Source of the DNA: Enterobacteriaceae bacterium UBA2655
GTDB lineage: Bacteria; Pseudomonadota; Gammaproteobacteria; Enterobacterales; Enterobacteriaceae
Direction of reading: 5' to 3'
DNA: 27,720 bases
Assembly: GCA_002359495.1 (NCBI GenBank)
Contig: DENB01000049.1
Span: 5,561 to 33,280 of the forward strand
Below are positions 4,277 through 27,636 of the stretch, piece by piece. Made by a program: the position numbers and the translations under genes. Position 1 is the first letter of the stretch. Each line of letters opens with the position of its first letter. Below the pieces are notes generated by a model. That model ran no database searches. It saw nothing but the letters and a program-made list of their open reading frames with translations, and was not told the DNA's origin.

Positions 4277-4306
4277 TTCAACTCCGAAGCGAATTTAACG
4301 TTGAAT

Positions 4307-4331
4307 AAAAAAAGTGGCCCTTGCGGGCCAC
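4307..4331 (-). terminator. Intrinsic terminator of the gbpA-like gene
   Basis: Read on the minus strand, a 7-bp GC-rich stem (gtggccc/gggccac on the plus strand, 4314-4320 with 4325-4331) and a four-base loop are followed by seven T (plus-strand A run 4307-4313). It begins 12 bases after the stop of the LPMO gene. Confidence 0.9.
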
Positions 4332-4342
4332 GAAATTAAGAT

Positions 4343-8832: not shown

Positions 8833-8933
8833 GACGTTCTCCTCGCTCTCATTGTATAGGCTTTCCGGCCACCTCATTGATGCTCTGGAGATCGGCATCC
8901 TGTGTAGGGTCAGGTGTCCGGTTTGCGGGGGGC

Positions 8934-9394: not shown

Positions 9395-10189
9395 ATGTTT
9401 ATATCAAAAGCAATGCGCGTTTTTGTGACTGTTTACCGTGAAAAAAGCTTGAAATCTGCCGCAGAACAGCTCTGTCTTACTGTACCGCCAGTGTCGCGGA
9501 TGCTTAAAATTCTCGAAGAACGTATTGGCGAAAAACTATTTATCATCGAACGTAACAGGATACGGCCAACTCATGCGGCTGAATGCCTTTACAACCAAAT
9601 CCTTCCACACTACTGTGCGCTTGAAAAGCTGAAAAAAACGCCTGAGCGCTCGCTTAAGCTTTCATCGCCTTATCTTAATACACTGATTGTTACCGACCTT
9701 TTTGAAACATTACCTGTACATCCGGAATATCAAACGCTCTTGCGGCAGGCCGACGGTATACAAGATGACGACGATATTTTTATCAGCCTGCATTCTGTCG
9801 CTTCGCCTTCCCATTTTCTCATTGAATATGCTGAATTAACGTTATCTCTATGTTGCATAACTTCGCTCGTTGCCGACTGGAAAAAAAGCGCGATACTGGC
9901 TGAACAGGATATTATTTGTCAACCTGGGTTTCAAAAAGCGCTGGAAGTGTTACGCACACATGGCTTCAAAGGAAATTATCGCCGTATTGATAACCCGGTT
10001 GTTTTGCAAAGTGCACTTTTAAAGGAGGAAGGCATTATTTTCCGAATATTTAATAAAATACCCTCAAAACTTAACACGTTACCCTACATTTACCGTCAAC
10101 CGATTTTTATCTACACCAATCAATTTAAGAAAAACTCTTTTCAAGAAGAAATTGTTACTGGAATCAAAAAGAGCATAGGAGATTTATAG
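9395..10189 (+). CDS. LysR-like transcriptional regulator
   Basis: A 264-residue protein. The first 65 residues form a LysR-type winged helix-turn-helix: MRVFVTVYREKSLKSAAEQL, then VPPVSRMLKILEERIGEKLF. The remaining 200 residues do not obviously match the standard LysR effector-binding domain: they are shorter, with an acidic run near residue 125 (DDDD) and a lysine-rich end. This resembles the atypical LysR proteins found in enterobacterial accessory islands. The ATG is preceded by a near-perfect AAAGGAGG four bases upstream; a TTG at 9374 would start ahead of that ribosome site and is unlikely. It is followed on the same strand by a small membrane protein gene. Targets and signal are unknown. 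Confidence 0.75.
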   Translation: MFISKAMRVFVTVYREKSLKSAAEQLCLTVPPVSRMLKILEERIGEKLFIIERNRIRPTHAAECLYNQILPHYCALEKLKKTPERSLKLSSPYLNTLIVTDLFETLPVHPEYQTLLRQADGIQDDDDIFISLHSVASPSHFLIEYAELTLSLCCITSLVADWKKSAILAEQDIICQPGFQKALEVLRTHGFKGNYRRIDNPVVLQSALLKEEGIIFRIFNKIPSKLNTLPYIYRQPIFIYTNQFKKNSFQEEIVTGIKKSIGDL

Positions 10190-10433
10190 GCATTAACACT
10201 AAATTCTGTTACCTAAGTAATAAATTACGTTATGATGACTCCAGATAATTCGGATAAGTTATATACCAACTTGCTTAGTAATGAGAATGGTTGCATCCCT
10301 AAAAAAAAATCAAATAGAGGATTAACAAAATTCTTTTTGTATCTGGAAGTATTTTTATACATACACCGGAGCCAAGTTAGAAAAAGTTTAATCTCATGCC
10401 ATATCAGATATGTTGGCAACAGGAGGAGACAAA
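10190..10433. other. Gap between the LysR-like gene and the small membrane protein gene
   Basis: About 240 AT-rich bases. A reading frame from 10232 crosses it and runs into the next gene, but has no ribosome site and no recognisable sequence, so I do not call it. No clear terminator or promoter was seen. Confidence 0.4.
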
Positions 10434-10754
10434 ATGAGTCATCTCATAACATGGGAATTTTTGAATGCGTTTTTCAGACCCCCCCTTTTTTTTTGCTTCA
10501 TCTTTTCTTTATGGGGTGGCATGGTTTGCTATCTGCTTAACAGATGTTTCAGAGCGATTGCTGTCATTCAGTTCCCATTATTCTCACAACTCATTATCTC
10601 TACATTTTTAGGTACGTTAGCAGGAGTTTTTTGTCAGAACATGGCATTGAGCGAGTCTATTATTCAGATCGTGTCCGGACTAGCAGGTGCTATTGGCAGC
10701 AACCTACTGTACTGGCTATGGAAATGTTGGTTCCCACTCAGAAAATCATATTAA
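10434..10754 (+). CDS. Small three-helix membrane protein, holin-like
   Basis: A 106-residue hydrophobic protein with three likely membrane helices (about residues 15-35, 45-66 and 72-96) and a short positive tail (KCWFPLRKSY). The last helices, with GTLAGVFCQN and SGLAGAIGSNLLYW, have the small-residue pattern of phage class I/LydA-like holins. No endolysin or spanin gene is nearby, so lysis is unlikely to be its job; a role in protein release or simple membrane function is possible. AGGAGGAG lies about eight bases before the ATG. The gene contains a C7T9 homopolymer tract early on (10479-10494). Family assignment is by shape only. Confidence 0.5.
   Translation: MSHLITWEFLNAFFRPPLFFCFIFSLWGGMVCYLLNRCFRAIAVIQFPLFSQLIISTFLGTLAGVFCQNMALSESIIQIVSGLAGAIGSNLLYWLWKCWFPLRKSY
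10479..10494 (+). repeat. C7T9 homopolymer tract inside the holin-like gene
   Basis: Seven C directly followed by nine T lie about 15 codons into the reading frame (codons for RPPLFF). Slippage by one base in either run would shift the frame and truncate the protein. Confidence 0.9.
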
Positions 10755-10875
10755 TGATGTTCACAACAAGACGTTAGCACAATCAGTAAATAAGGATTAT
10801 TATAAAAGAAAAAAACCAAACAAATTAAAAAATCATGTAAAACAAACAAAAAATAAAAAACATTAAGGACATTTT
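10755..10875. other. A-rich leader before the GH51-like gene
   Basis: About 120 bases, very rich in A on the plus strand. It ends in AAGGA six to seven bases before the ATG of the glycosidase gene. No clear promoter pair or operator was identified, and no copy of the 18921-18934 palindrome is present. Confidence 0.4.
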
Positions 10876-12738
10876 ATGAAAATCGAAGAAAAATATATAA
10901 AAGAAACACCTACCATCATTACAGTTAATATCAATCACCCTCTGCACGCTATTAACCCTGGCTTACTGGGCGTGAACCACCGTTATTTTCTTAATGGCGT
11001 GGGCATGTGGGATCCTGAACTTCGTCGGGTTAAGCCAGAGTTTCAGGAAAAATTTGATACAATCGGATTAACAACGATTCGTTATCCGGGTGGCACAACT
11101 GCCAATCTTTTCCAGTGGAAACGCGCAATTGGTGCTTATAATACACGTATCCCACAAGTTGATCCCTACCTTGATATGGGGCCCGATGATTGTTCTTTCG
11201 GGCTTGATGAGGCGCTACGTTTTGCCGAAAGTAATCATATGGAAACCCTCTATGTTTATAATTTCGGTAATGGCAATGCGCAGGACGCCGCTGAGTTAGT
11301 TGAATATCTGAATGCTCCGAATGATGGAAAACACCCTATGGCGGCGCTCCGTGCGGCAAATGGTCATCCGGAACCTTACAACATTCGCTCTTTTGAAATT
11401 GGTAATGAAATTGCCTTTATACCTCAACTGGTCGATCAAGAATATTGGCTGAGAGGCGCGCCAGAAAGCCAGTGGGCTGAATTATATGTTCACGGCGGCA
11501 CAGTAAATTTTACCGATCAGAATACAGGATTGGAGAGTGACTGGCGAGATAGTGCGGCAAAAAGCGATGGCTCTTCACTTCAGGTAAAATATATTAAATA
11601 TGCTCCCGTCAATGCCGCCGTCATGAATCCGCAAATTAAAGTAGCGGGTCAATCCTGGAATAGGATTGAAAGTCTCATTTATGCAGGAAAAGAAGATGTT
11701 TACGTTCTGGACGAACAAACCGGAGCCATTTATTTCGGCGATGGGACTCATGGTAATATCCCACCTCTTGATAGTATCATTACTGCCAGCTATAGCACCA
11801 CGCATGATGGTTTTAAAGATTATGTTAAATCCATGAAGGCAGTTGATCCCACTATTAACGTTTATATGGCGATGAATATCGTTGATGTACTGGTCCAGGC
11901 TGGTAAAGACATTGACTATGATGGTATGGTTATTCATCCTTACGGCTCATTTGAGGGTCCGTTCGATCCCGATAACATTCCGCAATATTATTATAGTGCA
12001 ATGGTAGATGCCGAAAGAAAAGTGCAGGTAGTAAAAAACTTACAAATTTCTCTGCAAAATTATTCCGGTAGAGATATTAAACCTGTTATCACTGAGTATG
12101 CCTTACATGATAGCGAGTTTAAGAAAATTGGAACGACTAATGAGACTGCACTTTATTATGAGGGTACATTAGGCGCAGCGCTTTATAGCGCTTATCAACT
12201 TATCCAGTTTATAAAAATGGATTTGGATTATGCATTAAGGCATTCACTCATTGACCGGATGTTTGAAAAATTATCTGCAACCCCGATGGCGTTTTTTGAC
12301 ACTTATACATTCCTCAAATCTGCACATGCCTGGATGATGGAGATGTTTTGCCAGCGAACCGGAGAAATGGAAGTTCAATCGTATTTTGAGAATGTGCCTG
12401 AATTAACCGTAACCGTAAGTGAAAATGGGCAGCCTGTGCAACGCACTATTCCTTTGCTGAGCGGAATGGCTTCGGTGGAAGGTAACGAATGTTACCTTAT
12501 GGTTCTCAACAGCTCGGCAGATAATCCGATAAGCGCATCGATTAATCTGCCAGTAAACGGCGTTGTCGATGCTGAAGTTTGGTCTCTGACCGCTGAGAAT
12601 ATCGATGATTACAATACTGATGAACAGCCTGACAAAGTCATCAAACAGGTTTCCGCCGTCAGTGTATTTGACGGTGTTCTGAACTATAGTTTTCCGGCAC
12701 ATTCGCTTACTGCTTTTAAGGTTATTATGAACGCGTAG
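10876..12738 (+). CDS. GH51-like glycoside hydrolase with an inserted FGDG beta domain
   Basis: A 620-residue protein without a signal peptide, hence probably cytoplasmic. The core resembles clan GH-A arabinofuranosidases (GH51): GLTTIRYPGG near residue 65, NGHPEPYNIRSFEIGNE with likely acid/base Glu178, KPVITEYALHD with likely nucleophile Glu407, and a C-terminal beta-sandwich ending in FPAHSLTAFKV. Between the two catalytic residues, about residues 205-310 form an extra segment whose end (GAIYFGDGTHGNIPP, then ASYSTTHDGF) looks like the beta module seen in some phage baseplate and large surface proteins. An alternative family is GH79 or another GH-A member, so alpha-L-arabinofuranosidase activity is not assured. 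The ATG has AAGGA upstream. An intrinsic terminator follows 18 bases after the stop. It is convergent with the sulfatase operon. Confidence 0.75.
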   Translation: MKIEEKYIKETPTIITVNINHPLHAINPGLLGVNHRYFLNGVGMWDPELRRVKPEFQEKFDTIGLTTIRYPGGTTANLFQWKRAIGAYNTRIPQVDPYLDMGPDDCSFGLDEALRFAESNHMETLYVYNFGNGNAQDAAELVEYLNAPNDGKHPMAALRAANGHPEPYNIRSFEIGNEIAFIPQLVDQEYWLRGAPESQWAELYVHGGTVNFTDQNTGLESDWRDSAAKSDGSSLQVKYIKYAPVNAAVMNPQIKVAGQSWNRIESLIYAGKEDVYVLDEQTGAIYFGDGTHGNIPPLDSIITASYSTTHDGFKDYVKSMKAVDPTINVYMAMNIVDVLVQAGKDIDYDGMVIHPYGSFEGPFDPDNIPQYYYSAMVDAERKVQVVKNLQISLQNYSGRDIKPVITEYALHDSEFKKIGTTNETALYYEGTLGAALYSAYQLIQFIKMDLDYALRHSLIDRMFEKLSATPMAFFDTYTFLKSAHAWMMEMFCQRTGEMEVQSYFENVPELTVTVSENGQPVQRTIPLLSGMASVEGNECYLMVLNSSADNPISASINLPVNGVVDAEVWSLTAENIDDYNTDEQPDKVIKQVSAVSVFDGVLNYSFPAHSLTAFKVIMNA

Positions 12739-12756
12739 CTCTGATTTCCTGTTGTC

Positions 12757-12786
12757 GCGATGCCTCTTCAGAGGCATCGCTTTTAT
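12757..12786 (+). terminator. Intrinsic terminator of the GH51-like gene
   Basis: A perfect 10-bp stem (gcgatgcctc/gaggcatcgc) with a ttca loop is followed by ttttat, 18 bases after the stop codon. Confidence 0.93.
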
Positions 12787-12796
12787 ATCTGCGCGA

Positions 12797-12925
12797 TCAG
12801 GTATTCTCTGAATTGGACGGATAAAGTTTCGTGCCTGCTTTTAACACTGCGTCATCGCTGTTCCGCATCGGCGGCAGCATTAACCATAAACAGATTGTCA
12901 AAAATAACGCAGCCCGGGCCAGCAT
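12797..12925 (-). CDS. Possible 42-residue single-helix membrane peptide
   Basis: An ATG 13 bases after the maturase stop opens a short frame starting MLARAALFLTICLWLMLPP, which would form one membrane helix, followed by a hydrophilic tail of about 23 residues. It is on the operon strand, and its stop lies just before the terminator of the convergent glycosidase gene. There is no clear ribosome site, and the peptide is not one I recognise, so it may be chance or the remnant of a longer gene. Confidence 0.25.
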   Translation of the reverse strand: MLARAALFLTICLWLMLPPMRNSDDAVLKAGTKLYPSNSENT

Positions 12926-12938
12926 CGCTGATAGTGAT

Positions 12939-14228
12939 TCATTTTCCACAACAGTTTTTATATTTTTTTCCACTGCCACAATGGCAAGATGCATTCCTGC
13001 TGCCGGGCTGATACAGCTTTACCTCCCGAGCCAATATTTGCATAATAATATCTGCTGGATATCCCGCTGCCATTAAGTCACGCATCAGGTTCATTTCCCG
13101 CCCGATATGTTTAAAGAAATGTTTATAACCTGCACAAAGGTAATTATGACCCAACTGGCCACTCATGGATATGGCAAAGCGGTGTTTCGGGCAGCCACCA
13201 TGACAGGCAAATCGATACTTACATTGCAGACACTCCTGCGTCAGCGTTTCACTTTTTGCTCGTCCAAATGTTATAGCCTGTTCGCTATTGTTCAGCGTTT
13301 TGATCGTTTGCCGATGAATATTTCCCAGCAGATGCTCTGGATAGACAAAGTGGTCGCAATTATAGAGATCGCCATTTGATTCCAACGCCAGAGCATGACC
13401 GCAGTTTTCTGAATGAACGCATAATACGGGGGGTTGACCACTCCAAGCTGCTAGGGCTACGTCAAACATCTGCACCGATACTCGTCCCACATCCCGACGC
13501 ACCCAGATATCGAAAATTTTGTTGAGAAACTCCCCGTACTGCCAGGATGGTACGCTCCAGGGAGCCAGCGTTGCCGCACTCTCGCCAGGCTGTACCAGCT
13601 TTAATAACGCAACGTCAGCAGTACTAATACGCTCAACCAGCGGAATAAATTGAATATGCCGTGAACCGGCAGAAACAAGGAATTCATACACTTCAGCCGC
13701 ATAGCCGACATTGTGTTTGCCAACTACGGTCAGAGTGTTAAAGGCAACGCTGTATGTTTTCAAAAGTTTCAGCGCATCTATTACATGCTGGTAAGTGCCT
13801 GCCCCACTGCGCGTCACCCGATAAGTATCATGCAGGTGTTGAGGTCCATCTATAGAGAGACCAATCAAGAAGTTATGTTCAGCAAAAAAAGCCGCCCATT
13901 CAGGAGAGAGCTGAATTCCGTTAGTTTGCAACGCATGCTGAATCTGTCTGCCGCCGCCATATTTATTACACAGCGCAATGACCCGCCGGAAAAAGGACAG
14001 CCCCATGATGGTAGGTTCGCCTCCCTGCCAGGCAAAGAGCACCTGTTGACTCGGCTGCGCTTCAATATGCTGCCTGATATATTGTTCAAGCGTCTCTTCT
14101 GACATACGCCAGTTCTGCTTTCGCTCCGGATAAAGGGCATCTTTTTCCAGATAGAAGCAGTAGCTGCAGTCAATATTACAGACCGAACCTGTCGGCTTTG
14201 CCATTACATGACACCCATGTACAGCCAT
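12939..14228 (-). CDS. Anaerobic sulfatase-maturating enzyme (radical SAM/SPASM)
   Basis: It oxidises the active-site cysteine of a sulfatase to formylglycine in the cytoplasm, using S-adenosylmethionine and iron-sulfur clusters. The 429-residue product shows CNIDCSYC (Cys17, Cys21, Cys24), the CX3CX2C radical SAM motif; FAWQGGEPTIMGL; the SPASM cysteines in CVHSENCGHALALESNGDLYNCDHF and CLQCKYRFACHGGCPKHR; and a C-terminal SEC-C zinc motif (CHCGSGKKYKNCC). It is the last well-supported gene of the operon, starting 19 bases after the second DUF202 gene; AGAAGG lies 13 bases before the ATG. Its obvious partner is the Cys-type sulfatase in the same operon. E. coli has only a short yidF remnant next to yidGH; here the gene is complete. 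Confidence 0.95.
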   Translation of the reverse strand: MAVHGCHVMAKPTGSVCNIDCSYCFYLEKDALYPERKQNWRMSEETLEQYIRQHIEAQPSQQVLFAWQGGEPTIMGLSFFRRVIALCNKYGGGRQIQHALQTNGIQLSPEWAAFFAEHNFLIGLSIDGPQHLHDTYRVTRSGAGTYQHVIDALKLLKTYSVAFNTLTVVGKHNVGYAAEVYEFLVSAGSRHIQFIPLVERISTADVALLKLVQPGESAATLAPWSVPSWQYGEFLNKIFDIWVRRDVGRVSVQMFDVALAAWSGQPPVLCVHSENCGHALALESNGDLYNCDHFVYPEHLLGNIHRQTIKTLNNSEQAITFGRAKSETLTQECLQCKYRFACHGGCPKHRFAISMSGQLGHNYLCAGYKHFFKHIGREMNLMRDLMAAGYPADIIMQILAREVKLYQPGSRNASCHCGSGKKYKNCCGK

Positions 14229-14247
14229 GTTCAGACGATATCCTTCT

Positions 14248-14571
14248 TCAGTACAGTCTGATAACGCTGCTGAGGACGACGGCCAGCGCATTCAGAAACA
14301 GCGCCGCGCAAATTAACTGCTTAGCACTATTAGTTTTGCGTAAAATTAACTCAGTATGCCACAAACGCTTTTGCTGATGGCTCAGCGTGTTAACTACCAG
14401 CGCTAAAGTTAATAAGGCAGAAATACTCCCCATAAGAATTAGCACGGCATGCCCACGATAAAATCCCGATTTTGCCATCAGCAACGCGAGAATAAGGATA
14501 GAACAGGCAGTACGGTGCCACGACATCGCTGTACGCTCCGGCTGCAGGCCGGAATCTTTTTCACTCTGCAT
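14248..14571 (-). CDS. yidG: YidG-like DUF202 inner-membrane protein
   Basis: A 107-residue protein with three predicted helices. The N-terminal DSGLQPERTAMSWHRTA segment matches the DUF202 signature and aligns with E. coli YidG (DPGLQPERTSLAWFRT). I start at the ATG at 14571, five bases after the yidH-like stop; a GTG overlapping that stop (GTGA) is an alternative. The ribosome site is weak, suggesting translational coupling to the upstream gene. DUF202 proteins have no firm bacterial function; the same domain makes up the membrane part of the yeast VTC complex. It is always paired here with the yidH-like gene, as in E. coli, between a regulator and the sulfatase maturase. Confidence 0.85.
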   Translation of the reverse strand: MQSEKDSGLQPERTAMSWHRTACSILILALLMAKSGFYRGHAVLILMGSISALLTLALVVNTLSHQQKRLWHTELILRKTNSAKQLICAALFLNALAVVLSSVIRLY

Positions 14572-14576
14572 CTGAC

Positions 14577-14918
14577 TCACAGCACCACCAAAATAAACAA
14601 TGTAAGCATAATGCCAGTGGCCAATCCTGCACTCAGCCAAAGCAGCCCATGTGGAAAAGGAAGATCAGCGTCATGTCTCATTGCTCGCTCATTGTTAACC
14701 CAGCGACGGTAGGCATAATATGACAGGCAGGCAGCGGTCAATCCCAGCGTCACAACCAGGCTCTCCCGGAACAGGTCGGGCGCAAGTTCGGCAGCCAGTT
14801 GATCAATGCCGATAGCTGCGGCCATAAATGCCAGTGCGGTGCGTATCCAGGCTAAAAAAGTACGCTCATTAGCCAGCGTGAACCGGTAATCCGGTGATTT
14901 TCCCTGTGTTTCCCACAT
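14577..14918 (-). CDS. yidH: YidH-like DUF202 inner-membrane protein
   Basis: A 113-residue three-helix membrane protein closely similar to E. coli YidH (115 residues): PDYRFTLANERTFLAWIRTALAF, then IDQLA, then NNERAMRHDADLPF. The ERTFLAWIRTAL stretch is the DUF202 hallmark. Its ATG shares one base with the gntR stop (TAATG), so it is translationally coupled to the regulator. The function is unknown. In E. coli the yidGH pair also lies beside a sulfatase gene (yidJ), so the association with sulfatases recurs. Confidence 0.92.
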   Translation of the reverse strand: MWETQGKSPDYRFTLANERTFLAWIRTALAFMAAAIGIDQLAAELAPDLFRESLVVTLGLTAACLSYYAYRRWVNNERAMRHDADLPFPHGLLWLSAGLATGIMLTLFILVVL

Positions 14919-15643
14919 TATCGGCCGTTCTCTACAATGTATTGATAATATTCCGCAATATGTTTCGCGATAGTGTATTCAACCAGATCCCCGCGTTCAT
15001 TAAAGCCCTTACGGATTTTAACCAGCAGAGGAACCGCAGAGCTAATATTGAGAATTTGGCAATCTTGCTCAGTCGGCAGTTCAGCAGTAAGGATGTCCTG
15101 ATAGGTATCAATATTTTCATTTCGCTCTTCTAAAGCCTGATACAACCCTCCGGAAACTTCTTCCGGCGACAGTAACCCTAAAGCTGGCGTCAGGTAGATA
15201 TAATTAACTTGGGCAGGCAAATTGTTTTCCCGATACAGAATACGGGTCAAACATTGAAGTTTTTCTGACAGCTCAATGCCGAAGAGCGTGCCTACCGACT
15301 CCGGCGGAGAGAGAAATTCCAGCGTAAGCGTTTTCCGAGAGATCGTCTGTTGCTGTTGACCATCCATCAAACTAATGCGTGTTTTTATTCCCTGTTTTTC
15401 TGAAGTGCTGATAACCATCGTCCCGATGCCTGCCTGACGCTTTACTAACCCTTTCGCCACGAGTTCAGCCAGAGCACGACGGGCCGTGATACGGCTGACG
15501 CCAAAACGCTCCTCAAATTCAGCCTCTGTAGGCAACACATCGTTCTTTTTGTATTCGCCTGTTTTGAGCTGATGCAGCAAAATTTCATACAGTTGCGCAT
15601 ACAGCGGCTTGGCTCCCCGTGAGTAATCGAGATCTTTTTTCAC
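14918..15643 (-). CDS. GntR/HutC-family transcriptional regulator
   Basis: A 241-residue protein. Residues about 10-78 form a GntR winged helix-turn-helix (PLYAQLYEILLHQL, LPTEAEFEERFGVSRITARRAL), and about 90-235 form a UTRA ligand-binding domain (HutC subfamily; TRILYRENNLPAQVNYIYL, then EYTIAKHIAEYYQY). HutC regulators usually repress sugar or amino-acid pathways and release DNA on binding a phosphorylated sugar or pathway metabolite. The start is a GTG with GGA eight bases upstream; no better ATG in frame exists. It lies within the operon, between the sulfatase and DUF202 genes, so it probably autoregulates through the palindrome before the PTS gene (inference). The effector could be the phosphorylated PTS product. 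Confidence 0.92.
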   Translation of the reverse strand: MKKDLDYSRGAKPLYAQLYEILLHQLKTGEYKKNDVLPTEAEFEERFGVSRITARRALAELVAKGLVKRQAGIGTMVISTSEKQGIKTRISLMDGQQQQTISRKTLTLEFLSPPESVGTLFGIELSEKLQCLTRILYRENNLPAQVNYIYLTPALGLLSPEEVSGGLYQALEERNENIDTYQDILTAELPTEQDCQILNISSAVPLLVKIRKGFNERGDLVEYTIAKHIAEYYQYIVENGR

Positions 15644-15666
15644 AAAAATATTCCATTTGAAGCATG

Positions 15667-15683
15667 CCCCGAAGATGTCGGGG
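15667..15683 (-). other. Hairpin between the sulfatase and gntR genes
   Basis: A 6-bp GC-rich stem (ccccga/tcgggg, five-base loop) lies in the 49-base gap between the sulfatase stop and the gntR start. No T-tract follows, so it may be an mRNA-stabilising or processing hairpin that sets different levels for upstream enzymes and downstream genes. Confidence 0.5.
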
Positions 15684-15692
15684 ATTCAGGTA

Positions 15693-17438
15693 TTAATTGA
15701 GCCGCATTTCTAATGCCATTTTGTAAAACAGGCTCTGATGCTGTGCAATCGTAATTTCTTCCAGTACGAACTGCCACAGATCTTCCTTTGTCCACTCCGG
15801 CCTGGCAACCTTCTCCAGTTTGAGCAAAAGATCGGATTGGCCGCTGTTTTCCAGATGTTGTTGAATACACAGTATGCCGTAACGGATTTGCGGCGAGTAG
15901 TCGCGAAATGCCGGTATCAGCATCGGATCCAGCCCCAGCAAGGGTAAAGCCGGTTGGGTAAATCCATAGCGAGACTCGAGTTCTTCCGGCGCATCGCTCT
16001 CTTTCATGTAGCGTTCCATCGCTAAAAAGAGGCGTCTGGCAACCTCCTGATCCTGGCATTGCCATTCCTGTTTTGGATCGCTTTTAAGATCATACAAACG
16101 GTGCCCAAACCGGTCCGATCTTTGAAGCATGACCGATTCTGCTGGAATTTTCATGAGTGGACAGCCTTTGGTAAAGCTGAAACCCGGATGCAAAGTCATC
16201 CTCTGTAATTCCTGCGGCGTAAAGCGGCGATTAATACGGGTGGGCATCAGAGTATATTCATACAGATTAGCGATGCCCTGCTCAACGGGGGAACGCATGT
16301 AAACATAGCGGCCATCAGTAATATTCACATGGCACCCGTGATAGCCAAACAGCGCATAATCACGTACTGGCGTGTCGTCAAGGATGGCAGGCTTCAGGGA
16401 AACGCCTTGCATATCGACCGGTATTTCTGCCCCGAAGAAATCCAACAGCGTGGCCGGAATATCGATGGTTTGCGCCAGCGCCTGGCGCGAACCGCCTGCG
16501 TCGGCACAGTCCGGATGCCAGATAAAAAACGGAATATTCGCCACTTCATTATATAGCGGCATAATATTTTTGCCCCACCACTCATGCTCACCTAGCAGGA
16601 AACCATGATCGGTATTGACGATAAGCATCGTATCTTTCCATAGTTCGTATCTATCCATGTAGTCAAGCACTCTGCCCACATACTCATCCACCATTGTCAG
16701 CAATGCCTTATAGTACTTTTGGATAATAGCTTTGCGTTCGCCACTCTCCGTGACAAAGTAATATGGCGGCCACCCATCAAATAAAGAGGACTCATCAATA
16801 CCATACATTTTCAGGTATTTTTCTGGCACAAAGAAGGGTTCATGCGGGTCGAAACACTCAAGCTGGAGAAACCATTTATCTGCAGCATGGTTGGTCCGTA
16901 TGAATTCCAGACCACTACTTATTGTGCGCGCCAGAGGATGTTCATCCTCATGTTTCATGAATTGCACGTTGATTTGATGCTGCGTTCGACTGGCGATCCG
17001 CCGTTGCTTAATTTCTTCCGGCTCTCCGGATTCATACTGGCAGAGCGGCTCATCTACTACCCCTTTCCAGGCATCGCCTTCCTGGCCTCGAATAAATTCG
17101 TAAGTGCTGTAACGGGAATGGTATGTGGCACCGCCATCCCGCCAGTAGTGCTTATGATCGGTCACCAGGTGCGTATGGATACCATGTTTTTTCAAAATTT
17201 CCGGCATTGAATCATCAAACGGCTCCAGTGGAGACCAGGAACGATGCAGGAAATTGTACCTGCCCGTATGGATTTCACGGCGTGCTGGCATACAGGGCAT
17301 ACTGCCAACGTAAAAATTGTTAAAACGTACCGTTTTTTCTTTAAGCCTTTGAAAATTGGGCGTGATGGCTGCATCGCTGCCATAAGCAGATAACATGTGC
17401 TTATTAAGTGAATCGAACATCAACATGATGGCCTTCAT
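15693..17438 (-). CDS. Cytosolic Cys-type sulfatase
   Basis: Hydrolyses sulfate esters. The 581-residue protein has the alkaline-phosphatase-like sulfatase fold: N-terminal MFDSLN with Asp9 as metal ligand, TPNFQRL, and the CMPARREIHTGR signature with Cys49 (CxPxR) as the residue converted to formylglycine. FDPHEPF (His199) and NTDHGFLLGEHEWWGK (Asp277, His278, Lys290) complete the active site. There is no signal peptide, so it should act in the cytoplasm on an imported substrate. The Cys form fits the anaerobic maturase encoded in the same operon. GGAG lies seven bases before the ATG, and the gene starts 27 bases after the PTS gene. Substrate specificity is unknown; it is only distantly like E. 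coli YidJ. Confidence 0.95.
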   Translation of the reverse strand: MKAIMLMFDSLNKHMLSAYGSDAAITPNFQRLKEKTVRFNNFYVGSMPCMPARREIHTGRYNFLHRSWSPLEPFDDSMPEILKKHGIHTHLVTDHKHYWRDGGATYHSRYSTYEFIRGQEGDAWKGVVDEPLCQYESGEPEEIKQRRIASRTQHQINVQFMKHEDEHPLARTISSGLEFIRTNHAADKWFLQLECFDPHEPFFVPEKYLKMYGIDESSLFDGWPPYYFVTESGERKAIIQKYYKALLTMVDEYVGRVLDYMDRYELWKDTMLIVNTDHGFLLGEHEWWGKNIMPLYNEVANIPFFIWHPDCADAGGSRQALAQTIDIPATLLDFFGAEIPVDMQGVSLKPAILDDTPVRDYALFGYHGCHVNITDGRYVYMRSPVEQGIANLYEYTLMPTRINRRFTPQELQRMTLHPGFSFTKGCPLMKIPAESVMLQRSDRFGHRLYDLKSDPKQEWQCQDQEVARRLFLAMERYMKESDAPEELESRYGFTQPALPLLGLDPMLIPAFRDYSPQIRYGILCIQQHLENSGQSDLLLKLEKVARPEWTKEDLWQFVLEEITIAQHQSLFYKMALEMRLN

Positions 17439-17465
17439 GCGCTTTCTCCATAAGAAAAATTCATT

Positions 17466-18890
17466 TTATGCCTGCCCGTTTTCCGTTGTTTTATCGTAGC
17501 GGCGGTATTTGCCAACTGCATAGGTCAGTACAAAGGCTGCGGCACATCCGGTTAGCCAGGCAAAAATATATTGCATATATTTACCGTCAGCGATAAGCGG
17601 CAGCGCAGATAGTCCAGCAGCGCCAATACCGTGCGTGGTCACATTGAACAGCACCACCATTATGCCGCCAATGCCCGCGCCGATAGAGCCGGTAATAAAG
17701 GCGAAGCCTGCTGGAATGTTCACGCCAAAAATGGTGGGTTCACCTACGGCTAATATGGAAGTCGGAATGGCGCCTTTAGCAATTTTTTTCATCATAGGAT
17801 CACGGGTAAGCAGCAGCACCGCTATCGCTGCGCCAACCATTCCGGAATTGGACATTATTTGAATGGCAAACAGCGGAGCATGCCCGGTAGCGTTGATCAT
17901 TTCCAGATGGATAGGGAACAAACCATGATGAAGGCCAAGGGAGATCAGAAACGGGAACAATGCAGCTAGCACAAACCCTGCCGCCATCCCGCCATTGGTG
18001 AGCAACCCGTTCAATCCGTGTAATATCGCATTTGATACCACCCCTGCGGCTGGCATTATTAAAAAAAGTAAGGCCGCAGCCATAACGCTCAAAATAACGG
18101 TGGGCGTCAGCACAACATCCAGCACATCCGGGATCAGTCGACGCACTCTTTTTTCCAGCCAACACATCAGCCAGACGCAAAAAATGACGCCAATCAGCCC
18201 GCCCTGGCCGGGCGTCAGACCCAGGACGGAAATTTGTGGCGCAATAGTAATCGCACCCAATACTCCACCCATTATGATTGTACCTCCAAACTCTTTTGCC
18301 GCCGTTACGCCGGTATAAATTGCCAGAAAACCGAACAGCGATTTAGAGACAATATTAAGAAATTCACACAGGCCCAAAAGATGACGTTGTTCAAGCACCA
18401 CCTGAGCGGGTGATAAATTACCGGCAGCCATAACTTGGTTAACCATTGCGTAGGAATCTGCCGAGTTAATTAAGACATTGTTTAGCCCCATCAGGATCCC
18501 GGCGGCGATTAATGGCGGCAGAACCGGAACAAAGATATTAGCGATATGCTTAAGCACCACTTTTATGAAGGTCTGTTTTTGCGCCCTTTCCCGGGCTTGG
18601 TTTGCACGTTGTTCCATGTCGCATGACGGAGGAATAATGGGCATTACCTTCATGTTATTACTGATAATGGCAGCGATTTTAGAGGATTTTCCCGGTCCGA
18701 CAATAACCTGCAATGTATCGTCTTCTACCACGCCAAGCACGCCCTTAATCGTTTTCAGCGCCTGCATATCTATCTGAGTCCTATCAACAACCGACATTCT
18801 TACTCTGGTCATACAATTAGTCACATGAGCCAGATTCTTCAGCCCGCCGCAATATTTCACAATGGAGTCAGCAACAAGGTTATAGTTCAT
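17466..18890 (-). CDS. PTS EIIBC permease, glucose/glucoside superfamily (MurP-like architecture)
   Basis: Imports and phosphorylates a sugar. The 474-residue protein has an N-terminal EIIB domain (about 1-85) with the phospho-Cys in VTNCMTRVRM (Cys26) and VGPGKSSKIA, then an EIIC domain of about ten helices with GLHHGLFPIHLEM, NSGMVGAA and the LAVGEPTIFGV signature. The length and order match E. coli MurP (474 residues, N-acetylmuramate), but the specificity need not be the same. No EIIA domain is fused or encoded nearby, so it likely borrows EIIA-Glc (Crr). I start at the ATG at 18890 with AGGA seven bases upstream, rather than the GTG at 18917, which lies at the predicted transcription start. 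First gene of the sulfatase operon, preceded by a CRP-type promoter. Confidence 0.93.
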   Translation of the reverse strand: MNYNLVADSIVKYCGGLKNLAHVTNCMTRVRMSVVDRTQIDMQALKTIKGVLGVVEDDTLQVIVGPGKSSKIAAIISNNMKVMPIIPPSCDMEQRANQARERAQKQTFIKVVLKHIANIFVPVLPPLIAAGILMGLNNVLINSADSYAMVNQVMAAGNLSPAQVVLEQRHLLGLCEFLNIVSKSLFGFLAIYTGVTAAKEFGGTIIMGGVLGAITIAPQISVLGLTPGQGGLIGVIFCVWLMCWLEKRVRRLIPDVLDVVLTPTVILSVMAAALLFLIMPAAGVVSNAILHGLNGLLTNGGMAAGFVLAALFPFLISLGLHHGLFPIHLEMINATGHAPLFAIQIMSNSGMVGAAIAVLLLTRDPMMKKIAKGAIPTSILAVGEPTIFGVNIPAGFAFITGSIGAGIGGIMVVLFNVTTHGIGAAGLSALPLIADGKYMQYIFAWLTGCAAAFVLTYAVGKYRRYDKTTENGQA

Positions 18891-18920
18891 TTTAGCATCC
18901 TGCGTTCTGTTTTTCACTCA

Positions 18921-18934
18921 ATTGTTATAACAAT
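18921..18934 (-). promoter_or_regulatory. Palindromic operator on the -10 of the PTS-sulfatase operon
   Basis: ATTGTTATAACAAT is a perfect 14-base palindrome with the GT...AC form that GntR/HutC regulators commonly bind. The minus-strand TATAAC within it (plus 18924-18929) sits at the position expected for a -10 with a start near 18917. A bound repressor would cover the promoter. Confidence 0.65.
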
Positions 18935-18950
18935 ATAACATTTAAAATAA

Positions 18951-18966
18951 TGTGAGAAATGTCATA
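18951..18966 (-). promoter_or_regulatory. Candidate CRP site (class II) of the PTS-sulfatase operon
   Basis: TGTGA-GAAATG-TCATA matches the CRP consensus TGTGA-N6-TCACA with one arm exact and four of five bases in the other. Its centre is 41.5 bases upstream of the predicted start at 18917, the classical class II activation position, and no good -35 element is seen, as expected for a CRP-dependent promoter. Confidence 0.65.
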
Positions 18967-19392
18967 GATATAGATCAAAAAATTGTTGCATTTTATAAGG
19001 TGAGATCGGACATAGATTTTGGAGAAAATACAGATGTTAAGAAAATTTTTGTCAGTACTCTTTGCATTCTGAAAACTGTCTAATATTATTGAAAAACAGT
19101 AAAGTGCGCGGCCATAGCCAACATCAGTATGAAAAGTGATTAATTAATTTTTTTGAAGTAATAATCTGCCTCTTTCCTGATAAGCGTATTAACTTTTATT
19201 AACCAAAATGAATATAACAGCTTATTAAGTCTGGCTTTTATGTTTTTTCAGCACGCCATCGAGCAATGAAGCTGACATCGTAACAGGCAATGCACTGAAA
19301 AAATTGACTTTTAAAAGCGGGTAACGTTCCTTACATACGTAGAGAAAATAATTATTCAAAAACAGTATATTTATGAATCAGACATTTCTTTA

Positions 19393-19417
19393 AACATAAG
19401 ATTTATATTCTTATGTT
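19393..19417. repeat. 9-bp inverted repeat upstream of the lyase gene
   Basis: aacataaga and tcttatgtt flank a 7-base spacer, about 190 bases before the lyase start. It could be an operator for a dimeric regulator. Confidence 0.5.
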
Positions 19418-19553
19418 ATATTAATATATTCCGTAAGCTAACCCTTGCGAAAAGTTAGTTTTTATCGTTAACTGGAATTTAAGCAACTGCAAAGCGCCCG
19501 AATCTTTCTAATTGTTAGAATGACTATTGTATATCACAGGGTGTAATACGCAT

Positions 19554-19568
19554 TAGCTTAATAAGCTA
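19554..19568. repeat. 7-bp inverted repeat just before the lyase gene
   Basis: tagctta-a-taagcta is a 15-base near-palindrome ending 40 bases before the lyase ATG, a sensible place for an operator. Confidence 0.5.
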
Positions 19569-19607
19569 CAGTTCAGGAAGACATTTATCCTTTTGAAGAA
19601 GCATAAA

Positions 19608-21185
19608 ATGATTAAATTATTAAATACTTTCAAAAAATTCACCAATTTTATTTTTATTACATTATTTTTTACTCCAGCAGCCTATCCTGAAGTACTTAAG
19701 TCAGTACCGAGTACTTTTACTGCTAAAACAGGCGGCGAGGCACGATTTCTGCTATTTCTTCCTGAAGGAGGCGCAATTTTACCTAATAATGTTCATGTCG
19801 ATGGCCTGCCTTCCGATTTTACCCCTCTTCTGACCTGCACGGGAAAAAAAGGGGACAAATGCAATGCTCAGGCGGGAACGGACGATCTGCCGATCCTGAC
19901 GCTGAAAGTCGCGGTCCCTTCATCAGCGGAGGAAAGAAAATATACCGCCACAATAACTTATGAGCATGAAGGCATAATATATAAAAGCACAGCCGTTATT
20001 GATGTCAGAGAAAAAATAAAATTTACTCACCCAGGCATTATGCTAAATAAGGCGATGCTGGAACAAATCAATGCTCATTTGCAATCTGGAAATCCAGTAT
20101 GGAGCAGAGCCACGCAAATCGCCTCGGAAAGTTTTTATGGCAGTAAATCCTACCAGCCTTCACCTCATAGCACCGTCTCCGCCGATGGTAATGAAGCGAC
20201 CGATCTGCGAAACGACGCGATTGCCGCCTATACACAAGCGTTACTCTGGTCCGCTACTCATGATGAAACCTACGCCAGAAACGCCATACGTATTATGAAC
20301 GCGTGGTCTGAAATGCTTTCCACTGACTTTACAGGTAGTAACCGATTCAACCTGGCGGCTTGGATGGGAGATGTCTGGCCGCGCGCTGCTGAAATTATCC
20401 GCTACACATATCGGGACAAGGATGGCAATGCGATCTGGAGAAGCGACGAGATTGCCCGCTTCGAAGATATGCTGAATAAATATTATGCCCGCTTTATTCT
20501 GGGTGATTTTTACACTTCTGGTATGTATGGCGGTAACTTAATTGCTTCTCAGGCGGCAGCGCTGATCAATATTGGCGTATTTAATAATGATGCGGAGACC
20601 TTTCTTGCCGGCATTGAAAAGTGGCGCCGTATGTTACCGGCTTATATTTATATGAAAAATGATGGTGATATACCTGCCCCGCCTGTTTTCTGGAGAAATA
20701 ACTATATCAACCGCACTAATTTATTAGGTCGTAACGGCTATTGGTATGATCAGAATCTTAAAGCTGATGAAATTGGCGAGGGTGGTATTAGCCAGGAGAC
20801 CTGCCGGGATTTGGGACATGTACTTTGGGGTTTTTCAGCGTTAGCGAATGGAAGTGAAACGGCCAGAATTCAGGGCATTGATCTCCATGCCGAAACAACA
20901 ATGGGGACGTCAAACACGGCTCGTCTTTCCGCCGGTCTTGAATTTAATCTGGCGTTTCTTAATGCGAATGAAAGCAATAAAACCATTGCGGCGCCTGCGG
21001 CTTTATGCGGGGGAGTCATCAACGCAGGACAATCTCCAGGCAAAGGTGAAATTTTATTCAATGATATTGTGATGCGCAGAGGGCTTTCGCTGCCGGAAAC
21101 GTCCCGTTATTTAGAAAACCAAAGGCCTACTTCAGCGAGCTATTTTATGATTTGGGAAACAATGAGTCACTATAGCAACCCCTGA
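19608..21185 (+). CDS. Secreted alginate-lyase-superfamily polysaccharide lyase
   Basis: A 525-residue exported protein. A signal peptide (MIKLLNTFKKFTNFIFITLF...TPAAYP) is followed by an Ig-like beta domain (about 28-135, with Cys77 and Cys85 close together) and an alpha-helical lyase domain (about 140-450). HPGIMLNK, AIAAYTQALLWSATHDETYARNAIRIMNAWSEML, and ISQETCRDLGH...ALANGSETARIQGIDL are typical of the PF05426 alginate lyase fold (PL5/PL38-like); Gln396, Glu397, Arg400, Asp401 and His404 are the conserved cluster. Family members cleave uronate-containing polymers by beta-elimination; alginate itself is not assured. I start at the ATG at 19608, although its ribosome site is weak (AGAAG); the TTG at 19593 would lengthen the signal peptide by five residues. 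It diverges from the PTS-sulfatase operon and is likely co-regulated. Confidence 0.85.
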   Translation: MIKLLNTFKKFTNFIFITLFFTPAAYPEVLKSVPSTFTAKTGGEARFLLFLPEGGAILPNNVHVDGLPSDFTPLLTCTGKKGDKCNAQAGTDDLPILTLKVAVPSSAEERKYTATITYEHEGIIYKSTAVIDVREKIKFTHPGIMLNKAMLEQINAHLQSGNPVWSRATQIASESFYGSKSYQPSPHSTVSADGNEATDLRNDAIAAYTQALLWSATHDETYARNAIRIMNAWSEMLSTDFTGSNRFNLAAWMGDVWPRAAEIIRYTYRDKDGNAIWRSDEIARFEDMLNKYYARFILGDFYTSGMYGGNLIASQAAALINIGVFNNDAETFLAGIEKWRRMLPAYIYMKNDGDIPAPPVFWRNNYINRTNLLGRNGYWYDQNLKADEIGEGGISQETCRDLGHVLWGFSALANGSETARIQGIDLHAETTMGTSNTARLSAGLEFNLAFLNANESNKTIAAPAALCGGVINAGQSPGKGEILFNDIVMRRGLSLPETSRYLENQRPTSASYFMIWETMSHYSNP

Positions 21186-21302: not shown

Positions 21303-22727
21303 TTACTTCTTCTTCGCTTTCGGGTTCGGCAGATCGGTGATGCTGCCTTCGAAGATTTCCGCCGCCAGGCCGACCGACTCGTGCAGCGTCGGGTGCGCAT
21401 GGATAGTCAGGGCGATATCTTCAGCATCGCAACCCATTTCGATAGCCAGACCGATTTCGCCCAGCAACTCGCCGCCGTTGGTGCCGACAATGGCACCGCC
21501 GATGATGCGATTGCTCTCTTTATCGAAAATCAGCTTGGTCATACCGTCCGCGCAGTCGGAAGCGATAGCACGGCCAGACGCCGCCCACGGGAAGGTCGCG
21601 GTTTCATAGCTGATGCCTTTCTCTTTCGCTTCTTTCTCAGTGAGGCCGACCCATGCCACCTCCGGCTCGGTGTAAGCGATAGACGGGATCACTTTCGGAT
21701 CGAAGTAGTGTTTTTTACCGGCGATCACTTCCGCCGCTACGTGGCCTTCATGCACGCCTTTGTGCGCCAGCATCGGCTGCCCGACGATATCGCCGATAGC
21801 ATAGATATGTGGCACATTGGTGCGCATCTGCTTATCAACGCGGATAAAGCCGCGATCGTCGACTTCCACGCCCGCTTTGCCTGCATCCAGATTTTTACCG
21901 TTCGGCACACGACCAATCGCCACCAGCACTGCGTCATAACGCTGCGCTTCAGCCGGCGCTTTTTTGCCTTCCATCGAGACGTAGATGCCGTCTTCTTTCG
22001 CTTCTACGGCGGTGACTTTGGTCTCCAGCATCAGGTTGAATTTCTTGCTGATGCGTTTGGTAAAGACTTTCACCACATCTTTATCCGCAGCCGGAATGAC
22101 CTGATCGAACATCTCGACCACATCGATTTCTGAACCCAGCGAATTATAAACGGTGCCCATCTCCAGACCGATGATGCCGCCGCCCATCACCAGCATGCGC
22201 TTCGGCACTTCTTTCAGCTCCAGCGCAGCGGTAGAGTCCCATACGCGCGGATCTTCATGCGGGATAAACGGCAGCTGAATCGGACGGGAACCGGCTGCGA
22301 TGATGGCGTTATCGAAATTGATGGTGGTTGAGCCGCCTTCGCCTTCTACCACCAGGGTATTGGCGCCGGTAAACTTGCCCAGACCGGTCACGACTTTGAC
22401 CTTACGCCCTTTCGCCATGCCCGCCAGACCGCCGGTCAGCTGGTTAATGACTTTCTCTTTCCAGGTGCGAACCTTGTCGATGTCGGTAGAAGGCTGACCA
22501 AAGACGATGCCATGCTCTTCAAGCGCTTTCGCCTCTTCAATCACTTTCGCGACGTGCAGCAGAGCTTTAGAAGGGATACAGCCGACGTTCAGACAGACAC
22601 CGCCAAGGGTGCTGTAACGCTCGACAATGACGGTCTCCAGACCTAAATCAGCGCAACGGAAGGCTGCAGAGTAGCCTGCAGGACCTGCCCCAAGTACCAC
22701 GACCTGAGTTTTAATCTCTGTACTCAT
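21303..22727 (-). CDS. lpd: Dihydrolipoamide dehydrogenase (E3)
   Basis: Reoxidises dihydrolipoyl groups of the pyruvate and 2-oxoglutarate dehydrogenase complexes and the glycine cleavage system, passing electrons to NAD+. The 474-residue product matches E. coli Lpd in length and nearly throughout. It shows the FAD-binding VVVLGAGPAGYSAA, the redox disulfide GGVCLNVGCIPSK (Cys45, Cys50), the NAD-binding VMGGGIIGLEMGTV, AIGDIVGQPMLAHKG and the catalytic HAHPTLHE. I use the second of two tandem ATGs (22727), which gives the E. coli N-terminus and better spacing from AGAGG. It has its own promoter between it and aceF, plus read-through from the pdh operon. Confidence 0.98.
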   Translation of the reverse strand: MSTEIKTQVVVLGAGPAGYSAAFRCADLGLETVIVERYSTLGGVCLNVGCIPSKALLHVAKVIEEAKALEEHGIVFGQPSTDIDKVRTWKEKVINQLTGGLAGMAKGRKVKVVTGLGKFTGANTLVVEGEGGSTTINFDNAIIAAGSRPIQLPFIPHEDPRVWDSTAALELKEVPKRMLVMGGGIIGLEMGTVYNSLGSEIDVVEMFDQVIPAADKDVVKVFTKRISKKFNLMLETKVTAVEAKEDGIYVSMEGKKAPAEAQRYDAVLVAIGRVPNGKNLDAGKAGVEVDDRGFIRVDKQMRTNVPHIYAIGDIVGQPMLAHKGVHEGHVAAEVIAGKKHYFDPKVIPSIAYTEPEVAWVGLTEKEAKEKGISYETATFPWAASGRAIASDCADGMTKLIFDKESNRIIGGAIVGTNGGELLGEIGLAIEMGCDAEDIALTIHAHPTLHESVGLAAEIFEGSITDLPNPKAKKK

Positions 22728-22844
22728 CATGACCTCTTAATTGATTTCCGGCGGGTCAGACGTCTTTTTTACCTGTCGCCGCGAGCGACGAGTAAATGAG
22801 TTATTAGCAACGCCCTTCATCCACCGGGACGCGTTCACCGCAAG

Positions 22845-27496: not shown

Positions 27497-27540
27497 GGGG
27501 TGTATTCCTTATCTGTGTCTAATACGTTGAATTGTCTGGA

Positions 27541-27603: not shown

Positions 27604-27636
27604 CCGTCGTTTTATCCGCGCGTTCGTTGCCGCGCG

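What the first reader, a model, noticed from the sequence alone, without database searches (positions are those of the whole stretch)
9395..21185. Sulfated-glycan utilisation block inserted between acnB and lpd
The block combines an exported alginate-lyase-superfamily enzyme, a PTS EIIBC permease, a cytosolic CxPxR sulfatase, its anaerobic maturase, a HutC-type regulator, two DUF202 proteins and a cytosolic GH51-like glycosidase. Together they would let the cell depolymerise, import with phosphorylation, desulfate and split a sulfated glycan, with sulfate removal inside the cytoplasm. Import of a still-sulfated sugar by a PTS is known from Gram-positive glycosaminoglycan loci but is unusual in enterobacteria. 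Enzymes for unsaturated uronates (GH88/GH105, kduI/kduD) are not in the window, so the substrate is open.
Basis: partly seen in the sequence, partly recalled or inferred. Interest (0 to 1): 0.75.

Follow-up and report, generated by a model that had tools for sequence, protein, structure and literature searches.

The report
Sulfated-sugar operon beside holin-linked glycosidase
A gut-type bacterium carries a travelling gene set that probably imports a small sulfated sugar and strips its sulfate inside the cell, next to a sugar-cutting enzyme that may be let out of the cell through a phage-type pore.

Summary
The block is not one unit. Its core is a six-gene operon, EIIBC-sulfatase-HutC-DUF202-DUF202-anaerobic maturase; EIIBC-sulfatase-HutC recurs in 16 of 16 loci with close sulfatases. 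TTGTTATAACAA precedes it in 16 of 16, with a CRP-like site exactly 17 bp upstream in 15 of 16; the window's assembly holds one exact copy. PTS import plus cytosolic desulfation of a small sulfated sugar is well supported but untested. It is not unusual in enterobacteria: related sulfatases sit beside two other PTS types. LysR-holin-glycosidase is a second unit, beside the operon in 2 of 16 loci (window, Rahnella bruchi). The GH51-like enzyme lacks a signal peptide while many relatives have leaders, so I propose holin-dependent export rather than a cytosolic role; no endolysin is linked, so this is unproven. The alginate-lyase-like gene is beside the operon in 1 of 16 and is probably incidental. 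New variant of known kinds; growth and secretion tests decide.

The parts
9395..10189 (+). LysR-type regulator (264 aa), 66% identical to the Rahnella bruchi copy; two of the relatives at 36-38% sit in holin/M15-peptidase/LPMO cassettes
10410..10754 (+). LydA-type (superfamily III) holin, 114 aa; only PF16083 match in the held 4.1 Mb assembly; coding in Rahnella bruchi at the same place (42% identity over 106 gap-free residues)
10876..12738 (+). GH51-like retaining glycosidase, 620 aa, no N-terminal hydrophobic leader; invariant E178 (presumed acid/base) and E407 (presumed nucleophile); inserted domain at about 202-308
12757..12780 (+). intrinsic-terminator-like hairpin after the GH51-like gene
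   Evidence: consensus scan; total number of hits, 16, is not above the 13.0 +/- 4.0 of shuffles
12939..14291 (-). anaerobic sulfatase-maturating radical SAM enzyme (anSME), last gene of the PTS-sulfatase operon
14248..14640 (-). DUF202 protein b (small membrane protein)
14577..14918 (-). DUF202 protein a
14918..15643 (-). HutC/GntR-UTRA regulator, presumed repressor of the operon
15693..17438 (-). cytosolic type I (formylglycine) sulfatase, 581 aa, CMPAR motif at 49-53, no leader
17466..18890 (-). PTS EIIBC permease, glucose superfamily, sucrose/beta-glucoside/MurNAc branch, no IIA domain found
18922..18933 (.). presumed HutC operator TTGTTATAACAA; one exact copy in the held assembly; identical upstream of EIIBC in 16 of 16 loci
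18951..18966 (-). CRP-like site TATGA-N6-TCACA, 17 bp upstream of the palindrome (same spacing in 15 of 16 loci)
19593..21185 (+). alginate-lyase-superfamily (PL5-like fold) protein with an N-terminal hydrophobic leader; beside the operon only in this window among 16 loci

Best explanation
The block is a composite of separately controlled units inserted between acnB and lpd. Unit 1 (12939-18966, minus strand) is a sugar-catabolic operon: CRP activates it and the HutC-type protein represses it from TTGTTATAACAA, which covers the -10 region; EIIBC, with the general IIA-Glc, imports and phosphorylates a small sulfated sugar; the cytosolic formylglycine sulfatase, activated without oxygen by the operon's own anSME, removes the sulfate; the resulting ordinary sugar phosphate goes to central metabolism. 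Unit 2 (9395-12780, plus strand) is a LysR regulator, a phage-type holin and a leaderless GH51-like glycosidase: the holin lets the glycosidase leave the cytoplasm so that it cuts a sulfated glycan outside and feeds unit 1. The alginate-lyase-like gene is a neighbour with no shown part in this. Shown: gene content, conservation, palindrome, CRP-like spacing, adjacency of both units in two genomes. Inferred: binding of HutC and CRP, import and desulfation, holin export, the substrate.
For: EIIBC directly upstream of the sulfatase, same strand, in 16 of 16 distinct loci; HutC in 16 of 16, anSME in 15 of 16, DUF202 pair in 11 of 16. Palindrome 16 of 16; CRP-like site at a fixed 17-bp spacing in 15 of 16, with at most 1 mismatch in 13 of 16 against 0.1% of mononucleotide-shuffled 120-mers. 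One exact palindrome in the held 4.1 Mb. Sulfatases with PTS types A (16), B (11) and D (1) form one supported clade (100/99). Rahnella bruchi has LysR-holin-GH51L-EIIBC-SULF-HutC-DUF202-DUF202-anSME in one row. The GH51L of the window and of R. bruchi lack a leader, while the Aliivibrio homologue starts with a Tat-like RR leader and Paenibacillus homologues have hydrophobic leaders and, in part, S-layer domains. The two presumed GH51 catalytic glutamates are invariant in 35 homologues; the fold is GH51. In Paenibacillus thalictri a 35% GH51L homologue lies beside two sulfatases, a GH95 and ABC permeases.
Against: Units 1 and 2 are adjacent in only 2 of 16 loci, and the palindrome is not upstream of unit 2, so they need not share a substrate. 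No endolysin or spanin is linked to the holin in either locus; an M15 peptidase like that of the G017 cassette lies elsewhere in what reads by eye as a Mu-like prophage. LysR relatives at 36-41% have a holin beside them in 2 of 6 other contexts looked at, and deletion of the Salmonella LysR gene stm0014 had no marked effect on ChiA (PMC10109510, passages). Not all GH51L relatives have leaders: 13 of 60 scanned, the Tat-like one among them, stay below 1.5 in a crude hydropathy test. In Tatumella an arylsulfotransferase gene lies beside the operon, which could point to aryl sulfates rather than a glycan. Activity, binding and growth were not testable. Paenibacillus genomes can hold many sulfatases (recalled), so the P. 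thalictri neighbourhood may be chance.
Confidence: 0.6

Rival explanations
1. One integrated pathway: exported lyase depolymerises, PTS imports a sulfated oligosaccharide, cytosolic sulfatase and cytosolic GH51-like enzyme finish it.
For: All genes are adjacent in the window; R. bruchi keeps GH51L next to the operon; GH51L has no leader; a disaccharide importer would need a cytosolic glycosidase.
Against: GH51L missing beside 14 of 16 operons and the lyase beside 15 of 16; of the 13 genomes with a type A operon reached through, only R. bruchi has GH51L at E<=1e-60; many GH51L relatives carry leaders and a holin gene lies directly upstream in both copies.
Confidence: 0.15
2. Unit 1 as proposed, but unit 2 is unrelated to it: a degenerate holin cassette that happens to lie beside the operon, the GH51-like protein being a cytosolic enzyme and the holin a leftover.
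For: Only 2 of 16 loci are linked; no endolysin; no shared palindrome.
Against: LysR, holin and GH51L keep order, strand and coding capacity in two genomes at 66, 42 and 73% identity while their orientation relative to the operon differs; a third LysR (P0242, 65%) and a third leaderless GH51L (P0004, 53%) come from contigs of the same stated length, 14234 bases, hence probably the same contig.
Confidence: 0.25
3. Unit 1 does not serve carbon supply but sulfate scavenging or handling of another sulfate ester, such as an aryl sulfate or its glycoside.
For: On the S. entomophila plasmid genes downstream are annotated sulfite exporter TauE/SafE and sulfur transferase; an arylsulfotransferase (PF05935) gene lies about 1.4 kb from EIIBC in Tatumella and another beside a GPH-type sulfatase locus, L051.
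Against: A CRP-like site at constant spacing in 15 of 16 loci and a PTS permease point to catabolite-controlled carbon use; the arylsulfotransferase was found in 1 of the 12 type A loci from which neighbours were scanned.
Confidence: 0.14

Closest known systems
Proteus vulgaris chondroitin sulfate operon (PMC9067506, passages)
   Same: Enterobacterales; putative PTS genes and a putative sulfatase in one operon
   Different: That operon carries lyases, an unsaturated-glucuronyl hydrolase and monosaccharide genes; the operon here has none of these and adds maturase, HutC and DUF202 genes
E. coli IIC-IIB-sulfatase cluster between rlmC and artJ (two genomes inspected)
   Same: Related cytosolic sulfatase (47-48%) directly behind PTS genes
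   Different: EIIC-GAT type PTS; no HutC, DUF202 or maturase annotated beside it; sulfatase placed outside the A+B+D clade, on a long branch
Enterobacterial type B loci: Glc-type EIIBC directly upstream of a sulfatase (11 fetched of 13; family searches on L048 only)
   Same: PTS and sulfatase of the same clade; DUF202 nearby in 9 of 11 and a divergent anSME in 9 of 11
   Different: Different PTS subtype; in L048 an aldose-epimerase/RpiR fusion instead of HutC
Type 10 secretion: S. marcescens chiWXYZ and Salmonella chiA operon (PMC10109510, PMC13284979, PMC9527704, passages)
   Same: Holin gene and, in Salmonella, a LysR gene beside a carbohydrate-active enzyme
   Different: No peptidoglycan hydrolase or spanin here; the presumed cargo itself lacks a leader
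GH51 alpha-L-arabinofuranosidases (3ug3, 3s2c, 4atw)
   Same: Fold (Foldseek E 2e-34, TM 0.81 by target length) and two invariant glutamates at the expected motifs
   Different: 18% identity and an about 100-residue inserted domain that resembles part of baseplate-J-like proteins

Membership tests
Type I formylglycine sulfatase | CxPxR motif and sulfatase domain above cut-off | tested here: met
   CMPAR at 49; PF00884 118.8 vs 25 bits
Type I formylglycine sulfatase | matching anaerobic maturase | tested here: met
   TIGR03942 494.9 vs 349.45 bits; in the operon in 15 of 16 loci
Type I formylglycine sulfatase | sulfatase activity on a sugar sulfate | not testable with these tools
   -
PTS glucose-superfamily EIIBC | EIIB and EIIC domains above cut-off | tested here: met
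   PF00367 38.4 vs 27, PF02378 89 vs 30.7 bits
Sucrose, MurNAc, beta-glucoside or trehalose permease | NCBIfam cut-off score of TIGR01996, NF007152, TIGR01995, TIGR01992 | tested here: not met
   258.1, 213.5, 216.8, 173.8 bits against 559.3, 516, 614.7, 591.95
Glycosaminoglycan-type PTS operon | unsaturated-uronyl hydrolase and uronate genes with the PTS and sulfatase | tested here: not met
   none among the ten block proteins scanned; a lyase-superfamily gene is beside the operon in this window only; 19 neighbours from 12 of 16 loci gave one LPMO and no lyase or glycoside hydrolase, other neighbours were not scanned
Type 10 secretion system | holin | tested here: met
   PF16083
Type 10 secretion system | linked peptidoglycan hydrolase | tested here: not met
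   none seen in the block or in R. bruchi locus L055; an M15 peptidase lies elsewhere, by eye in a prophage
Type 10 secretion system | holin-dependent release of the cargo | not testable with these tools
   needs a secretion assay
GH51 | fold and two catalytic glutamates | tested here: met
GH51 | arabinofuranosidase activity / NCBIfam ArfA cut-off | tested here: inconclusive
   NF051901 71.4 vs 625 bits; PF06964 31.2 vs 27; activity not testable
PL5-like alginate lyase | fold | tested here: met
   AF2 model pLDDT 91; A1-III, AlgL and Smlt1473 at E 1e-5 to 5e-4, 11-17% identity, with PL17 enzymes and a chondroitinase close behind; no sequence match in the PDB

The most novel reading that the evidence does not exclude
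A Gram-negative bacterium exports a folded, leaderless glycosidase through a phage-type holin with no endolysin partner, to release a sulfated sugar that a PTS-sulfatase operon then takes up: a holin acting as the translocator of the enzyme itself. [quoted passage not shown] it also names hints, such as leaderless MaeB of S. marcescens, whose secretion fell in a holin mutant (passages).
Probability: 0.33. Interest if true: 0.72.

Novelty: new variant of a known kind. Interest (0 to 1): 0.52.

Why it matters
The operon is a defined, portable and cheaply testable example of desulfation after PTS uptake in Enterobacterales, with a predicted operator and promoter geometry; the paper searches I made listed no description of it. 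The holin-glycosidase pair makes an open question directly testable: whether a holin in a Gram-negative cell can move a cargo enzyme other than an endolysin.

Tried and rejected
Tried, led nowhere or rejected. (1) My first lead, recalled, was the E. coli yidFGHJ set; the one paper search with that name found no paper using it among the 10 listed of 271, and the recurring partner is a PTS, so I dropped it. (2) A phage or plasmid source for the LysR-holin-GH51L unit: holin matches in phages are weak (12 records, 32-34% over 62%), the GH51-like gene has no plasmid match at E<=1e-20, and neither protein was found in viral contigs by this close-relative search. (3) LysR relatives on plasmids: 5 records match, I looked at 3, none with a holin beside it; told as evidence against. 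(4) GH51L frequency: 1 of 369 genomes of the class (the window's own; only three others are of its order), 0 of 329 of the Thaumasiovibrio family (without a positive control); I did not run it over the 295 family genomes. (5) The palindrome as a sign of co-regulation of the glycosidase or lyase: rejected, one exact copy. (6) Defence-system reading: no PADLOC match in 5 proteins. (7) Flanking repeats as insertion marks: only short pairs, none at the block's ends that I could use. (8) The first hydropathy table was computed on gapped rows and is wrong; redone. (9) The output was cut in the middle, so I recounted all 16 loci. Rows left out: in the tree I used 59 of the 96 loci; left out were 4 near-duplicates (L035, L036, L037, L140) and 33 distant loci, among them Paenibacillus macerans L064, which has a Glc-type EIIBC 1.7 kb from the sulfatase as well as ABC permeases. 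In one search many distant loci show none of the transporters I probed for.
Full report
What is there. The window is G000:C47:5561-33280 of a 4.1 Mb, 112-contig assembly, 91.75% complete. Between acnB (6235-8898) and lpd (21303-22730) lie LysR, holin and a GH51-like gene on the plus strand; then on the minus strand, read from its promoter, EIIBC, sulfatase, HutC, DUF202, DUF202, anSME; then an alginate-lyase-superfamily gene on the plus strand. G+C is 40% for the LysR-holin-GH51L unit, 48% for the operon, 45% for the lyase-like gene and 57% in both flanks. The two congeners in the survey (G146, G240) have a LysR-like and an aldo/keto-reductase-like gene at this spot, and Rahnella bruchi has a 1.2-kb interval without the block (these gene names are read from sequence, not from a family search). 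Neither congener has a sulfatase match at E<=1e-80. The site is variable and the block is an insertion.

The core operon recurs. A scan of one genome per species returned 72 loci with relatives of the sulfatase. Thirteen of them have sulfatases of 64% identity or more; with the window, genome G027 and a Serratia entomophila plasmid (found through EIIBC) this makes 16 distinct loci. EIIBC is directly upstream in 16 of 16 (for the plasmid by way of its finding), HutC is present in 16 of 16, anSME in 15 of 16 (not in Thaumasiovibrio), the DUF202 pair in 11 of 16. The stretches compared reach 6-9 kb to each side in most loci, less for L056 (1.3 kb on one side) and the plasmid (1.7 and 4.5 kb). In the family survey EIIBC at E<=1e-170 occurs in 5 of 295 genomes, the same five that hold the closest sulfatases; the wider sulfatase family occurs in 22 of 295. 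I scanned 19 neighbouring proteins from 12 of the 16 loci against Pfam: they are diverse (regulators, transporters, TonB receptor, fimbrial genes, dienelactone hydrolase), with one LPMO (L060), one arylsulfotransferase (Tatumella L054) and no lyase or glycoside hydrolase. So the insertion sites differ and no depolymerase travels with the operon as far as this sample shows.

Regulation. The 12-bp palindrome TTGTTATAACAA lies upstream of EIIBC in 16 of 16 loci, and one exact copy is in the window's assembly. A CRP-like site TATGA-N6-TCACA lies exactly 17 bp further upstream in 15 of 16 (at most one mismatch in 13, two mismatches in 2, absent at that place in Thaumasiovibrio); at most one mismatch was reached in 0.1% of mononucleotide-shuffled 120-mers. 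If CRP sits at -41.5, as in class II promoters (recalled), the palindrome covers -16 to -5 and its middle, TATAAC, is the -10 element; the start is then near 18917 and the first codon is the ATG at 18890. I infer CRP activation and HutC repression. The palindrome is not in front of LysR, the holin, GH51L or the lyase-like gene.

What the operon does. The sulfatase has the formylglycine motif, no leader and its own anaerobic maturase, so desulfation is presumably cytosolic. EIIBC belongs to the sucrose/beta-glucoside/MurNAc branch but stays far below every specificity cut-off. With no glycosidase in the operon, I infer a small substrate whose desulfated phosphate feeds ordinary metabolism. Relatives of the sulfatase sit beside three other PTS types: Glc-type EIIBC in 11 of 11 type B loci fetched (of 13), lac-type IIC in an Erysipelotrichaceae contig, EIIC-GAT plus IIB in E. 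coli (family searches on one locus of each). In a 59-row tree the 16 type A, 11 type B and the one lac-type sulfatase form one clade (100/99); type A alone is one clade (100/99); E. coli's lies outside on a long branch, so its place is unsure. In 552 of 5426 E. coli genomes a stretch similar to part of the query was found, in the listed rows within a sulfatase gene; two were inspected, one with an annotated internal stop in its IIC gene. Some more distant sulfatases sit with GPH or MFS symporters or ABC permeases; for many no probed transporter was near. So PTS plus cytosolic sulfatase is a recurring enterobacterial theme, and the Proteus vulgaris chondroitin operon is a published precedent (PMC9067506, passages).

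The holin unit. The GH51-like protein folds as GH51 (AlphaFold2 pLDDT 91; Foldseek E 2e-34 to 3ug3) with two glutamates at the GH51 catalytic motifs invariant in 35 homologues. In the searches made it is rare. The window and R. bruchi copies have no leader, whereas the Aliivibrio homologue starts MKRRNFLK (Tat-like) and Paenibacillus homologues have hydrophobic leaders, several with S-layer domains; in a crude hydropathy test 47 of 60 homologues reach 1.5 near the N-terminus and 13 do not, P0004 and P0011 among the latter. In the window and in R. bruchi a holin gene lies directly upstream (42% identity over 106 gap-free residues) and a LysR gene before it (66%; GH51L 73%). The genus of the window is not told, so I do not say that these are two genera. 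The holin is the only PF16083 match in the assembly. LysR relatives at E<=1e-15 are in 3 of 295 genomes besides the window's own (eight candidates per genome at most were scored, so this is a lower bound). Two of these three lie in a cassette with an M15 peptidase, a PF16083 holin and, on the other strand, a leaderless LPMO. Salmonella's chiA operon has LysR, holin and peptidoglycan hydrolase genes, but loss of its LysR gene had no marked effect on ChiA (PMC10109510, passages). Against a fixed link, the third chromosomal LysR relative and the three plasmid ones looked at have no holin beside them, and no endolysin is linked here. A review states that in Gram-negative bacteria only endolysins have so far been shown to be moved by holins, and names leaderless MaeB and Tc toxins as possible further cargo (PMC9527704, passages). 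The pair is thus a test case, not a proven system.

Link between the units. They are adjacent in 2 of 16 loci, in opposite relative orientation, and the two sulfatases are sisters with moderate support (82/82). Of 30 genomes reached through sulfatase loci, 2 hold GH51L at E<=1e-60: R. bruchi and Paenibacillus thalictri. In the latter a 35% homologue lies beside two leaderless sulfatases, a GH95 and ABC permeases. This supports, weakly, a sulfated glycan as the GH51L substrate.

The lyase-like gene. It has a hydrophobic leader and an alginate-lyase (PL5-like) fold, occurs in 2 of 295 family genomes at E<=1e-60, the other of which (G082) is not among the 22 sulfatase holders, and is beside the operon only here. 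I treat it as incidental.

Papers. Of PMC10109510, PMC13284979, PMC9067506 and PMC9527704 I saw passages found by term search, not whole texts; other papers only as search listings. None of the ten searches (the first two returned no paper, some lists were longer than shown) listed a description of this operon or of this holin-glycosidase pair; subscription papers are mostly not held.

Noticed in passing
window 3752-5797: A GbpA-type LPMO (with leader) and a cytochrome b561 lie between acnB and yacL; in both congeners yacL follows acnB directly, so this side of acnB is variable too.
   Followed up: partly
L138:9610-10215 and L139:6109-6714: LPMO genes beside a LysR-M15-holin cassette encode AA10 proteins whose HGH motif starts near residue 12 with no leader: possible leaderless type 10 cargo.
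   Followed up: partly
window 10876-12738, residues 202-308: The GH51-like family carries an inserted domain that matches TIGR02243 / a baseplate-J-like chain (9gtp).
   Followed up: partly
L141:7179-10357: E. coli O157:H7: EIIC-GAT IIC, IIB and sulfatase between rlmC and artJ; 552 of 5426 genomes match part of the query DNA.
   Followed up: partly
L054:5201-7099 and L051:5290-7266: Arylsulfotransferase (PF05935) genes beside the operon in Tatumella and beside a GPH-type sulfatase locus.
   Followed up: no
L060:16781-17452: An LPMO (PF03067) gene 2.3 kb from the operon in Enterobacteriaceae bacterium RIT693.
   Followed up: no
L144 (G000:C100:58000-75000): By eye a Mu-like prophage with M15 peptidase and spanin-like gene in the same genome.
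   Followed up: no
L142: The six-gene operon on a 145-kb Serratia entomophila plasmid typed conjugative, next to sulfite exporter and sulfur-transferase genes.
   Followed up: no
window 27501-27632: Rfam tp2 sRNA match beside aceE.
   Followed up: no
window 14248-14918: DUF202 genes travel with the sulfatase in types A, B and GPH loci; role unknown.
   Followed up: partly
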